Positions 35,268 to 37,783 of a stretch of DNA of 64,000 bases are shown one piece after another. Origin of the DNA: Chromobacterium subtsugae (lineage in GTDB: Bacteria > Pseudomonadota > Gammaproteobacteria > Burkholderiales > Chromobacteriaceae); the NCBI RefSeq assembly GCF_001676875.1, contig NZ_JYKA01000011.1:1-64000 (forward strand). Direction: 5' to 3'. Both the position numbers and the translations under genes were made by a program. The notes beneath the pieces are model-generated. The model was not told the origin of the DNA. It was given only the letters and a program-made list of their open reading frames with translations, and searched no databases. Each line of letters starts with the position of its first letter. Position 1 is the first letter of the stretch.

Positions 35268-35423
35268 CGAAATTTTCCGTCTTGTTTGGTTTGGAATGCG
35301 GCCCGGAGCGCCAGGCCGCGGGCGAAAGATTAAAATGCCAACAACATGGTAGATTTGACCCAGATCAGCAGCGCCTGCGCCGCTAGTTCGCGCCTGCCTG
35401 TTGGGCCAGTTGGCGCCGCCGGC

Positions 35424-35453
35424 TTGACATTACGGCTGGACACCAGACATGAT
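35424..35453 (+). promoter_or_regulatory. Promoter of the His attenuator
   Basis: A perfect -35 TTGACA (35424-35429), an 18-base spacer and CATGAT (35448-35453) as -10. The start site would fall at about 35459-35461, on or next to the leader ATG at 35460. Transcript start is inferred. Confidence 0.6.
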
Positions 35454-35459
35454 GAAGAC

Positions 35460-35633
35460 ATGAAAACCTGCCGATTCCACCGCCACCACCATCACGGCCT
35501 GCCCCAGGGCGCCGGGGCGCCGGGGCGGCGCGCGGTCGTCGGGAGGAAAGCGCGAGCTGACCCATCCGTCAGCCGCAAACCGCACAGGCGCCGCAAGGCG
35601 CCTTTTTTATCGCCCGCGCGCAAGACGCGCTGA
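35460..35633 (+). CDS. Histidine-rich attenuator leader peptide
   Basis: The ORF begins MKTCRFHRHHHHG, with five His codons within six codons, the hallmark of his-operon leader peptides. It then runs on as a basic low-complexity tail to TGA at 35631-35633, 57 residues in total, 11 bases before the next gene. Classical leaders stop soon after the control codons, so either the tail is genuine (ribosomes then cross the terminator) or a base error has removed an earlier stop. The function is as a ribosome sensor of charged tRNA-His, inferred from codons plus downstream hairpins. Confidence 0.65.
   Translation: MKTCRFHRHHHHGLPQGAGAPGRRAVVGRKARADPSVSRKPHRRRKAPFLSPARKTR
35508..35573 (+). promoter_or_regulatory. 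Pause/antiterminator hairpin region of the His attenuator
   Basis: A GGCGCC/GGCGCC hairpin (35508-35513 and 35516-35521) lies just after the His codons. A second hairpin follows, GCTGAC/GTCAGC (35556-35561 and 35568-35573). Because GGCGCC is self-complementary and occurs again in both arms of the terminator, the upstream copies can pair with terminator arms instead. Confidence 0.55.
35587..35608 (+). terminator. Attenuator terminator before the HisRS-like gene
   Basis: GGCGCC, loop GCAA, GGCGCC, then six T (35603-35608). It lies inside the transcribed leader, 36 bases before the downstream ATG, so it is placed as an attenuator rather than an end-of-operon terminator. Confidence 0.75.
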
Positions 35634-35644
35634 AAGGAAACACC

Positions 35645-36485
35645 ATGACCATGATCCGAGGCACCCGCATCGTCGCCGGCCGCGAGGCCGCCCTTCTGCG
35701 CCAATTGGAAAACCGCTTCCGGGGCTGGCTTCATTGACGCCGGCGCCGACGAAGCCATCCTGCCCGCGCTGTGGGGACAGGACACCTTTGTCGCAAAGGC
35801 CGGCGGCAGCGAAATTCTCGAACAGATGTGGGCATTCCCCGACCGCAAGGGCCGCGCCTGCTGCCTGATCCCGGAAGCCACCGCGCTGTTTCAGGAGAAA
35901 AACCGGGAATTTCTCAACGGCCGGCGCGAGGCCAGTTTCTTCTACGTCGCGCGCTGCTATCGCTATGAAAGGCCGCAAGCCGGGCGCTACCGCGAATTCA
36001 CCCAACTGGGCTTCGAATGCCTGGGGCCGGACCCGGCCGCCGCGCGGGAGCGCAGCCTGGCGCTATGCCGCTGCTTTCTGGATGGACTGGGGCTGCGCTA
36101 TCAGCTGGACGCTTCGGCGCGACGCGGGCTTAGCTACTACCTGGGCGGGGAAGGCTTCGAAATGCGCGTGCCGGAGTTGGGGGCGCAAAAACAGGTAGTC
36201 GGCGGCGGCGCGTACCGCGAAGGCGCCGGCTTCGGCATAGGGCTGGAGCGGCTGGCGCTCGCGCTGGCGGCGCAGACATCCAGCCGTGACGGCGTAAAAA
36301 AGGCCGGGCGTCTGCCCGGCCTTGCGATGCCTGCTCAGGCTCAGACGCCGGTGCCGCCGACCGTCAGGCCGCCGTCGATGCGCAGCGTCGGCTGGCCCAC
36401 GCCCACCGGCACGCTCTGGCCTTCCTTGCCGCACACGCCCACACCCTGGTCCAAGGCCAGGTCATTGCCTATCATCGACACGTAG
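35645..36485 (+). pseudogene. Histidyl-tRNA synthetase-like core, frameshifted
   Basis: The frame opens at 35645 (MTMIRGTRIVAGREAALLRQ; AAAGGA upstream) but stops at TGA 35735-35737. A one-base expansion of the G run at 35721-35724 would restore reading into GFIDAGADEAILPALWGQ. The continued frame has class II HisRS motif 2 (CYRYERPQAGRYREFTQLG) and the HisA/motif 3 region (QVVGGGAYREGAGFGIGLERL), about 215 residues without an anticodon-binding domain. After motif 3 the frame has no stop until 36485 and reads antisense through the tldD terminator and end, so the natural stop also seems lost. It is preceded by a His attenuator. It could be a decayed paralogue or a gene with assembly errors. 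Confidence 0.6.
36296..36321 (-). terminator. Rho-independent terminator of tldD
   Basis: On the minus strand GGCCGGGC, a 4-base loop, GCCCGGCC, then six T. It begins 20 bases after the tldD stop. Confidence 0.9.
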
Positions 36486-37783
36486 TTCAGCACTTCCGGG
36501 CCGCTGCCGATCAGCGTGGCGCCCTTGACCGGATAGGTGAGCTTGCCGTTTTCGATGCGCCAGGCTTCCGACGCCGAGAACACGAACTTGCCGCTGGTGA
36601 TGTCCACCTGGCCGCCGCCGAAATTCACCGCGTACAGGCCATCCTTGACTGAAGAGATGATTTCCTGCGGATCGCGCTCGCCGGCCAGCATATAAGTGTT
36701 GGTCATCCGCGGCATCGGAATGCTGGCGTAGGACTCGCGCCGGCCGTTGCCGGTGGAGGCCTCGCCCATCAACCGCGAATTGAGCGCGTCCTGCATATAG
36801 CCCTTGAGGATGCCGTCCTCGATCAACACCGTGCGCTGGGTGGGGTTGCCCTCATCGTCGATGGCCAGCGCGCCGCGGCGGCCGCCCATCACGCCGTCGT
36901 CCACCACGGTGACGCCGGAGGCGGCGACGCGCTGCCCCACCATGCCGCTGAAGGCCGACGTGCCCTTGCGGTTGAAGTCGCCCTCCAGGCCATGGCCGAT
37001 GGCCTCGTGCAGCAGCACGCCGGGCCAGCCCGGCCCCAGCACCACGGTCATCTGGCCTGCAGGCGCCGGGCGCGATTCCAGGTTGACCAACGCCTGCTTC
37101 ACCGCTTCGCGCACATAGCGCTCCACCACCGCGTCGTCGAAATAGTTGAGGTCGAAGCGGCCGCCGCCGCCGGACGAGCCCTGTTCGCGCCGGCCGTTCT
37201 GTTCGGCGATCACCATCACCGACACCCGCACCAGCGGACGCACGTCGGCGGCGCGCACGCCGTCATGGCGGGCGACGTAGACCACGTCGTATTCGGTGGC
37301 GAGGCCGGCCATCACCTGGATCACGCGCGGGTCCATCGCCTTGGCCAGGCGTTCCACCTTTTCCAGCAAGGCCACCTTGCCGGCGGCCTCCATGCTGTGG
37401 CAAGGGTCGATCGATGGATACAGCGATTGCGGCTTGCGCTTCTCCACCGCGCCGGCGCTGCCGTCGCCGCCGGTCCGGCCGATGGCGCGCACCGCCTCGG
37501 CGGCGCGGGTCAGCGCGTCCTGGCTGATGGCGTCGGAGTAGGCGAAAGCCGTCTTCTCGCCGGACACCGCCCGCACGCCCACGCCCTGGTCGATGCTGAA
37601 GCTGCCCGACTTGACGATGCCCTCCTCCAGGTGCCAACCCTCGTTGCGGGTGTACTGGAAATACAGGTCGGCGTAGTCGATATCGTGGCGGCGCATATGC
37701 GCCAGGGTCTGCTCGATGGCGGACTCGTCCAGGCCGTAAGGCTTGAGCAGCAATTCATCTGCGGCGGTGAAGGCATCTTGCAT
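36341..37783 (-). CDS. tldD: Metalloprotease TldD
   Basis: 480-residue subunit of the TldD/TldE protease, which acts on peptides such as antitoxins and modified-peptide precursors. The zinc motif HEAIGH is at about 258-263, with [16 protein letters not shown] after it. The C-terminal [23 protein letters not shown] is typical of TldD. No tldE is in the window. It lies 10 bases downstream of the nitrilase-family gene in a yhdP-nit-tldD row common in proteobacteria. Confidence 0.95.

What the first reader, a model, noticed from the sequence alone, without database searches (positions are those of the whole stretch)
35424..36485. Complete histidine attenuation module in front of a HisRS-like gene
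A TTGACA promoter, a leader with FHRHHHH, self-complementary GGCGCC hairpins that can swap partners, and a U6 terminator precede a short HisRS-core gene. This is classical his-operon attenuation applied to a synthetase paralogue without an anticodon-binding domain, not to a his operon. Such a paralogue could act as a sensor or modifier of tRNA-His or other substrates.
Basis: partly seen in the sequence, partly recalled or inferred. Interest (0 to 1): 0.75.

Follow-up and report, generated by a model that had tools for sequence, protein, structure and literature searches.

The report
Histidine-starvation frameshift switch for mini-HisRS
A small histidyl-tRNA-synthetase-like gene, found in some bacteria and in large phages, appears to be made properly only when ribosomes run short of histidine: they must shift reading frame at a histidine codon, much as the release-factor-2 gene is controlled at a stop codon.

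Summary
The histidine attenuator is real: a His-rich leader peptide precedes the same gene in 76 of 79 related loci, with a GGCGCC-type terminator in 74 of 76 such leaders. The gene starts at 35645, not 35826, runs 30 codons and hits TGA; the HisRS-like body lies in the +1 frame. All 78 bacterial genome loci with the junction share SD-like CGGAGC, a 3-nt spacer, CTT, then a His codon (CAT 74, CAC 4). This is the prfB (RF2) frameshift cassette with UGA replaced by a His codon. In 13 phage loci the slip codon varies (CTT 5, GTT 8) but the His codon stays. One phage contig has the cassette at another position (L159). Best reading: low His-tRNA lifts attenuation and triggers +1 slippage at the hungry His codon, giving a ~213-aa mini-HisRS that keeps HisRS active-site motifs but lacks the anticodon and insertion domains. 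In many phages tRNA-His genes lie nearby. A 2016 review says no example is known of such frameshifting making a starvation-specific protein. Response to histidine and enzyme activity are inferred, not shown; no structure could be predicted.

The parts
35424..35453 (+). Promoter-like site: -35 TTGACA (35424-35429), -10-like CATGAT (35448-35453); ends 6 nt before the leader ATG, so the leader mRNA may be leaderless
   Evidence: sequence; in relatives the best-scoring -10 ends 4-7 nt before the leader ATG in 58 of 75 loci, though mean scores are only a little above shuffles (6.9 against 6.0)
35460..35633 (+). His leader peptide frame MKTCRFHRHHHHGLPQ... (His codons 35478-35480 and 35484-35495); in this copy without the early stop seen in relatives
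   Evidence: leaders of relatives
35508..35521 (+). Candidate antiterminator strand(s): two GGCGCC motifs able to pair with the 5' arm of the terminator
   Evidence: equivalent pairing in relatives 73 of 74; with a stricter cut 69 of 74 against 40.2 expected in shuffles
35587..35608 (+). Intrinsic terminator GGCGCC-GCAA-GGCGCC-TTTTTT
   Evidence: stem plus T-run in 74 of 76 leaders of relatives; a run of at least 5 T upstream of ORF1 in 77 of 79
35645..35737 (+). ORF1, zero frame: 30 codons MTMIRGTRIVAGREAALLRQLENRFRGWLH then TGA; N-terminal part of the HisRS-like protein
   Evidence: zero frame under purifying selection in 78 loci; ATG start in 76 of 78
35720..35738 (+). Frameshift cassette CGGGGC-TGG-CTT-CAT-TGAC: SD-like hexamer 35720-35725, spacer 35726-35728, slip codon CTT 35729-35731, His A-site codon CAT 35732-35734, zero-frame stop TGA 35735-35737
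   Evidence: pattern found once in the 4.8-Mb genome; same layout as the genome's own prfB site
35733..36485 (+). HisRS-like body in the +1 frame (IDAGADEAILPALWGQ...GIGLERL); conserved part ends near 36281, this copy reads on past the usual stop

Best explanation
A mini histidyl-tRNA synthetase gene under two nested sensors of charged tRNA-His. Step 1 (inferred from conserved anatomy): a ribosome stalling at the His run of the leader peptide frees an RNA strand that pairs with the 5' arm of the terminator, so transcription continues. Step 2 (the frame switch is shown by conservation; the trigger is inferred): in ORF1 the ribosome has tRNA-Leu on CUU, an internal SD 3 nt upstream and a His codon in the A site. 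If His-tRNA is plentiful it reads CAU/CAC in frame and soon stops, making a short dead peptide. If the His codon is hungry, the P-site tRNA slips +1 from CUU to UUC and translation continues in +1, giving a ~213-aa protein. This is RF2 (prfB) autoregulation with the UGA replaced by a His codon. Step 3 (inferred): the protein, with HisRS active-site motifs but no anticodon or insertion domain, charges tRNA-His and so closes a negative feedback loop. The phage copies keep the frameshift switch, and many lie beside phage tRNA-His genes.
For: Junction: 78 of 78 bacterial loci have CTT followed by a His codon (CAT 74, CAC 4), placed by protein match and not by motif; 13 of 13 phage loci have slip codon CTT 5 or GTT 8 and His codon CAT 9 or CAC 4 (L122 and L123 are copies). 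SD-like hexamer exactly 3 nt before the slip codon; mean anti-SD pairs peak at that register (4.04 of 6 bacteria, 5.15 of 6 phages). The window genome's own prfB reads ATT CGG GGG TAT CTT TGA C and phage contig L099 reads ATT CGG GGG TAT CTT CAT. The coding frame switches at the site: ORF1 synonymous:non-synonymous single-nt codon differences 23566:5784 in frame 0 against 4373:26712 in +1; body 41556:5891 in +1. A second cassette at a different position, CGG AGG CGA CTT CAT, in L159. CTT is 3 of 409 Leu codons in six long window ORFs that I picked. Leader in 76 of 79 loci; the two bacterial loci missed by the script show HH peptides. HisRS motifs kept where the genome's HisZ has lost them; insertion and anticodon regions unmatched. 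tRNA-His within the fetched flank in 10 of 12 frameshifted phage loci, in Phosso, L172 and L159, in several directly beside the gene.
Against: No experiment shows frameshifting, its dependence on histidine, or any enzyme activity. In 39 of 79 loci (nearly all Pseudomonas) the zero frame reads five sense codons past CTT before it stops, so the 'off' product differs. Re-pairing of GTT to TTC in eight phage loci is poorer than CTT to TTC. The antiterminator count has a high chance level (69 against 40.2 expected of 74). Why a synthetase should be made when histidine itself is scarce is unclear; it would help only if charging limits. No tRNA-His near the frameshifted gene in L132, L133, L164, L165, L278 or in the bacterial loci L004, L058, L065, L117; and 4 of 8 in-frame phage relatives checked also have one, so the link belongs to the gene, not to the switch. 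In-frame relatives without the switch are common: 28 of the 37 loci by my reading, and L166 lies among frameshifted forms in the tree. The second origin rests on one contig. No structure prediction could be run. The window's own copy has an abnormal leader and 3' end.
Confidence: 0.74

Rival explanations
1. A +1 programmed frameshift that is simply efficient and constitutive: the SD and CUU do the work and the His codon is only moderately slow, so there is no histidine regulation at this step.
For: SD and slip codon are strong elements in prfB (review passages). In 39 of 79 loci the zero-frame stop lies five sense codons past CTT, so there is no race with a release factor at the site.
Against: The A-site codon is His in 78 of 78 bacterial and 13 of 13 phage loci, through CAT/CAC changes that alter the +1 residue (Ile to Thr) and through a change of slip codon; a second cassette at another position again uses His; most bacterial copies also carry a His attenuator.
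Confidence: 0.13
2. The +1 frame is translated by internal initiation, for example at AUU/AUC just after the SD-like element (as in infC, recalled), or by re-initiation after ORF1, not by frameshifting.
For: SD-like hexamer about 8 nt before ATT/ATC, which are the +1 codons in 73 of 78 loci; record annotations start the CDS in the +1 frame.
Against: Four of 78 bacterial loci have ACT/ACC there and the four phage loci with CAC have ACT, which are not known start codons. ORF1 is under protein-level selection, aligns with the N-terminus of in-frame homologues, begins with ATG in 76 of 78 and has a loosely defined SD before it in 73 of 78. CTT rather than another Leu codon would not be needed.
Confidence: 0.05
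3. The product does not charge tRNA-His but acts as a histidine or tRNA sensor, a HisZ-like partner of HisG, or transfers histidine to another acceptor. (This concerns the product only and can hold together with the frameshift switch.)
For: No anticodon and no insertion region matched; two records call it 'ATP phosphoribosyltransferase regulatory subunit'; no neighbour shared across bacterial genera that would name a pathway.
Against: Closer to hisS (105 bits) than to hisZ (51 bits); HisRS motifs kept, unlike the genome's own HisZ; near tRNA-His genes in many phages.
Confidence: 0.3
4. Decayed gene or sequencing artefact: the frame change is an ordinary indel.
For: The window copy has an atypical leader and tail; one genus member (L014) is decayed.
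Against: Same junction in 78 of 78 bacterial loci (71 distinct 60-nt contexts) and 13 phage loci, with purifying selection on both sides.
Confidence: 0.01

Closest known systems
Release factor 2 (prfB) autoregulatory +1 frameshift
   Same: Short zero-frame ORF at the start, SD-like hexamer, 3-nt spacer, CTT slip codon, body in +1, product that would relieve the cause of the pause; the 15 nt up to and including CTT in phage contig L099 equal those of the window genome's own prfB.
   Different: The A-site codon is a sense His codon, not UGA; the sensed factor would be His-tRNA, not RF2; the slip codon can be GTT in phages; a transcription attenuator is stacked on top in bacteria.
his operon transcription attenuation (hisL)
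   Same: Leader peptide with consecutive His codons, mutually exclusive terminator and antiterminator.
   Different: Precedes a lone HisRS-like gene, not a his operon; leader mRNA possibly leaderless; no Rfam family matches at gathering score in the window or in five relatives.
Histidyl-tRNA synthetase (HisS)
   Same: Class II core with HisRS motifs; best PDB relatives are HisRS, E 1.9e-21.
   Different: About 213 aa against 423 aa for the genome's own HisS-like protein; insertion and anticodon-binding regions missing; below the hisS model cut-off (105.2 against 286.75 bits).
HisZ (ATP phosphoribosyltransferase regulatory subunit)
   Same: HisRS-derived paralogue; used as annotation for two members.
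   Different: The genome's HisZ has lost HisRS motifs that this family keeps; hisZ model only 51.3 bits against a cut-off of 271.65.
Hungry-codon frameshifting (starvation-induced, E. coli)
   Same: Slippage when an A-site codon lacks its aminoacyl-tRNA (PMC5009743, passages).
   Different: There a phenomenon without a known programmed use for a starvation-specific protein; here a conserved site placed to express a gene.

Membership tests
RF2-type +1 programmed frameshift cassette | SD-like sequence 3 nt before the slip codon | tested here: met
   CGGAGC 67, CGGAGT 5, AGGAGC 4, CGGGAC 1, CGGGGT 1 of 78 bacterial loci; pairing peak at that register
RF2-type +1 programmed frameshift cassette | CTT slip codon | tested here: met
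   CTT in 78 of 78 bacterial loci; in phages CTT 5 and GTT 8 of 13
RF2-type +1 programmed frameshift cassette | UGA stop in the A site | tested here: not met
   a His codon (CAT or CAC) in 78 of 78 bacterial and 13 of 13 phage loci
RF2-type +1 programmed frameshift cassette | gene encodes release factor 2 | tested here: not met
   HisRS-like; prfB lies elsewhere in the genome
his-type transcription attenuator | leader peptide rich in His codons | tested here: met
   window; 76 of 79 loci by script
his-type transcription attenuator | intrinsic terminator with alternative antiterminator pairing | tested here: met
   terminator in 74 of 76 leaders and antiterminator in 73 of those 74; control 69 against 40.2 of 74
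his-type transcription attenuator | leader stop codon before the terminator, in the window copy | tested here: not met
   leader frame open to 35633; the 76 leaders of relatives have an early stop
his-type transcription attenuator | readthrough responds to histidine supply | not testable with these tools
   needs expression data
HisRS (HisS) | HisRS motifs 2 and 3 and RGL-YY motif (motif roles recalled) | tested here: met
   aligned to the genome's own HisRS; invariant columns
HisRS (HisS) | C-terminal anticodon-binding domain and insertion domain | tested here: not met
   two matched stretches with a gap, nothing C-terminal
HisRS (HisS) | curated hisS model cut-off | tested here: not met
   105.2 and 99.1 bits for two members against 286.75
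HisRS (HisS) | charges tRNA-His | not testable with these tools
   needs an aminoacylation assay
HisZ | curated hisZ model cut-off | tested here: not met
   51.3 and 37.3 bits for two members against 271.65
RNA leaders described in Rfam | match at gathering score | tested here: not met
   0 matches in the window and in five relatives

The most novel reading that the evidence does not exclude
The first natural gene whose expression is programmed through hungry-codon frameshifting: the RF2 autoregulatory cassette re-tuned from a stop codon to a histidine codon, so that a mini-HisRS is autoregulated by the charge of tRNA-His. It arose at least twice (main clade and L159), is carried by large phages often next to tRNA-His genes, and in bacteria is stacked under a leaderless His attenuator.
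Probability: 0.68. Interest if true: 0.95.

Novelty: new variant of a known kind. Interest (0 to 1): 0.9.

Why it matters
A large review of recoding (PMC5009743, 2016; passages seen) says that starvation-type 'hungry codon' frameshifting could help make trans-frame proteins with a function specific for starvation, but that no examples are known. This family is a strong candidate with an easily tested cassette. It would show that the RF2 switch is modular: change the A-site codon and it senses another factor. It would also add a synthetase-like protein thought to be autoregulated through charged tRNA, and it explains why members are annotated with starts in the wrong frame or as HisZ.

Tried and rejected
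Rfam: no match at gathering score in the window or in five relatives; five hits at E up to 10 in 35350-35700, best E 0.14 and far below their cut-offs, taken as chance. Conserved neighbours: clusters shared only among close relatives, apart from a LysR-like family at scattered places in 9 loci. Exact DNA pattern CGGGGGTATCTTCAY in viral contigs: 83 stretches, too short a pattern; one (L245) is on a contig known to carry the gene, the other 82 were not examined. The first tree used wrong outgroup ORFs (neighbours of hisS and hisZ) and was discarded; the second has long outgroup branches (HisZ 10, HisRS 3.48), so its rooting is weak, and support for L159 lying among in-frame forms is moderate (85/87). 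GeneTack paper (PMC3711429; passages, section 11): its '+1 tRNA synthetase' cluster of 215 genes in 81 genera is classed as phase variation; I could not tell whether any member is this family, and 'histid' does not occur in the main text. Ten literature searches, judged from their listings, showed no report of this gene or switch; the library lacks most subscription papers. PMC8211752, PMC3500957, PMC12421855 and PMC13245932 were searched for terms only; of PMC5009743 the first 300,000 of 475,107 characters are held. Rows dropped or repeated: L090 (contig begins inside the gene); L019 (junction lost); L123 equals L122; L132 is the contig of L099; L162, L168, L169, L170, L171 are the contigs of L124, L127, L128, L125, L131. 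The 13 own-genus and plasmid junctions were picked by the motif itself (13 of the 14 loci) and partly repeat the 78, so I do not count them as further support.

Full report
The observation. The window holds TTGACA (35424), a leader frame from ATG 35460 with FHRHHHH, GGCGCC motifs, and a terminator GGCGCC-GCAA-GGCGCC-T6 at 35587-35608. A HisRS-like frame follows (PF13393, 31.1 bits). The genome also has two full-length relatives of 423 and 383 aa, which I take as HisS and HisZ from their sequence. The leader frame of this copy has no stop before the terminator (open to 35633), unlike relatives. The gene does not start at 35826.

The missed feature. An ATG at 35645, with AAAGGAAA before it, opens MTMIRGTRIVAGREAALLRQLENRFRGWLH and stops at TGA 35735. 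The HisRS-like body is in the +1 frame from 35733. Of the first 14 loci examined (the window's own, 10 others of the genus, 3 Paraburkholderia plasmids) 13 have the same 30-codon ORF1 ending in ...LH; L019 lacks the region, and L014 is decayed in its body.

Conservation. A scan of one genome per species gave 79 loci, in Chromobacterium, Burkholderia, Paraburkholderia, Trinickia, an unnamed Burkholderiales, Achromobacter, Variovorax, Pseudomonas, Chitinimonas, Parachitinimonas and Andreprevotia. One (L090) begins inside the gene. In the other 78 the slip codon is CTT 78 times and the next codon His 78 times (CAT 74, CAC 4); the hexamer before the 3-nt spacer is CGGAGC 67, CGGAGT 5, AGGAGC 4, CGGGAC 1, CGGGGT 1. 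They have 71 distinct 60-nt contexts, so some are near copies. CTTCA is invariant, including two positions that are wobble positions in +1, whereas most other +1 wobble positions vary. Substitutions fit frame 0 before the site (23566 synonymous, 5784 non-synonymous single-nt codon differences over all pairs) and +1 after it (41556 and 5891); the wrong frames give the reverse. Pairs of related sequences are not independent, so these counts show direction, not a probability. CTT is rare: 3 of 409 Leu codons in six long window ORFs.

Likeness to prfB. The genome's own prfB has ATT CGG GGG TAT CTT TGA C. Phage contig L099 has ATT CGG GGG TAT CTT CAT: the same 15 nt, with UGA replaced by CAU. The prfB motif in print is an AGGGGG-like SD, 3 nt, then CTTT (PMC12421855, passages). 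The pattern CGGRGC-N3-CTTCAY-N2-AC was found once in the 4.8-Mb genome, at this gene.

Phages. A profile scan of viral contigs gave 16 loci; 12 carry the frameshifted gene and 4 are in-frame. With Sinorhizobium phage Phosso that makes 13 junctions, two of them copies: slip codon CTT 5 or GTT 8, A-site codon CAT 9 or CAC 4. Further junctions are L164 and L165 (CTT CAT), L172 (GTT CAC) and L278 (CTT CAT). L159, which groups with in-frame forms in the tree (85/87), has CGG AGG CGA CTT CAT about nine codons earlier in the protein; by my count a slip there gives the same length as its in-frame relative L103. If that single contig is correct, it is a second origin of the same switch. tRNA-His genes lie in the fetched flank of 10 of the 12 loci L122-L133, in Phosso, in L172, and twice directly downstream in L159. 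In L125, L126 and L128 a tRNA-His begins within about 15 nt of the gene's end. None was found near L132, L133, L164, L165 or L278. Some loci hold large tRNA arrays, where a tRNA-His nearby means little, and 4 of 8 in-frame phage relatives checked have one as well.

The attenuator. A His leader (at least 3 His in 6 residues) was found by script in 76 of 79 loci, one of the misses being the phage locus L099. The two bacterial misses, L049 and L095, show HH peptides, one with a GTG start, one partly masked by N. A GGCGCC-type stem with a T-run was recognised in 74 of 76 leaders; of the other two, L092 plainly has one and L080 does not. In 73 of the 74 an upstream strand pairs with at least 4 of 6 bases of the terminator's 5' arm, and mostly also with the His-codon region. 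Against shuffled spacers the stricter count is 69 against 40.2 of 74: a real excess over a high chance level. The best -10 ends 4-7 nt before the leader ATG in 58 of 75 loci, which suggests leaderless leader mRNAs, although promoter scores are only a little above shuffles (6.9 against 6.0).

The protein. Read through the CTT-C step the product is 204-218 aa in nine loci and aligns end to end with in-frame relatives. It is nearest to HisRS (NCBIfam hisS 105 bits, hisZ 51; PDB 1adj E 1.9e-21) in two stretches that leave out the insertion and anticodon regions. Beside the genome's own HisRS it keeps PE-T, R-ERPQ-GRYR-F-Q-G-E (one phage subgroup varies here), RGL-YY and the motif-3 Arg; the genome's HisZ has lost several of these. 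That these are the histidine- and ATP-binding residues is recalled, not tested. No structure could be predicted.

Distribution. In the genus 12 of 19 genomes match at E 1e-10, one decayed (G018) and one a remnant (G012); 7 have none. In the family 11 of 61 genomes match at E 1e-20, all in the own genus. In a spread of 398 genomes of the phylum a search with the in-frame relative L103 found 2, one of them the window's own. Plasmid copies exist and no neighbour is shared widely. It looks like an accessory, mobile gene. In the tree the bacterial frameshifted forms are one group (100/99) beside the phage forms, so at least one transfer between phages and bacteria is likely.

Mechanism. The A-site codon is the constant element: it stays His when the slip codon changes, when its wobble base changes, when the zero frame reads on for five codons past CTT (39 of 79 loci), and when the cassette sits elsewhere (L159). 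That singles out His-tRNA supply as the sensed variable. Re-pairing of tRNA-Leu from CUU to UUC is at least as good as CUU to UUU in prfB (reasoning from base pairing). The attenuator would sense the same signal one step earlier. Shown here: conservation of leader, terminator, cassette and frame switch. Inferred: the response to histidine, the exact slip and the enzyme's role. Whether the window's own copy still works is open, given its leader and tail.

Novelty. Hungry-codon frameshifting, RF2 frameshifting and his attenuation are each known. The 2016 review (passages) states that no example is known of such frameshifting used for a protein with a starvation-specific function. Ten library searches, judged from their listings, showed no report of this gene or switch (listed under Tried and rejected).

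Noticed in passing
35460-35633 and 36282-36485: The window copy differs from relatives at both ends: no early leader stop, and the body frame reads on about 66 codons past the usual end toward the convergent gene at 36341-37783. It may be starting to decay.
   Followed up: partly
L014 (G018), L015 (G012): A decayed copy and a short remnant of the gene in two other members of the genus.
   Followed up: partly
L103:2890-3522: Pseudomonas silesiensis plasmid pPL1 has an in-frame relative without frameshift but with a His leader (MNTSTQFFALHHHQSHCR...) and a terminator, so attenuation and frameshift can occur separately.
   Followed up: yes
L166, L167: In-frame phage member that lies among frameshifted ones in the tree (L166): a possible loss of the switch.
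   Followed up: partly
L119 (own prfB): The genome's prfB has a classical RF2 frameshift site ATTCGGGGGTATCTTTGAC.
   Followed up: yes
L127, L130, L131: Viral contigs of more than 400 kb with 31 to 37 predicted tRNA genes within about 8 kb around the mini-HisRS gene.
   Followed up: no
L017:6033-6644, L018:6033-6644, L100:2968-3558: Public records annotate members with a start in the +1 frame, as 'ATP phosphoribosyltransferase regulatory subunit' or 'histidyl-tRNA synthetase'.
   Followed up: yes
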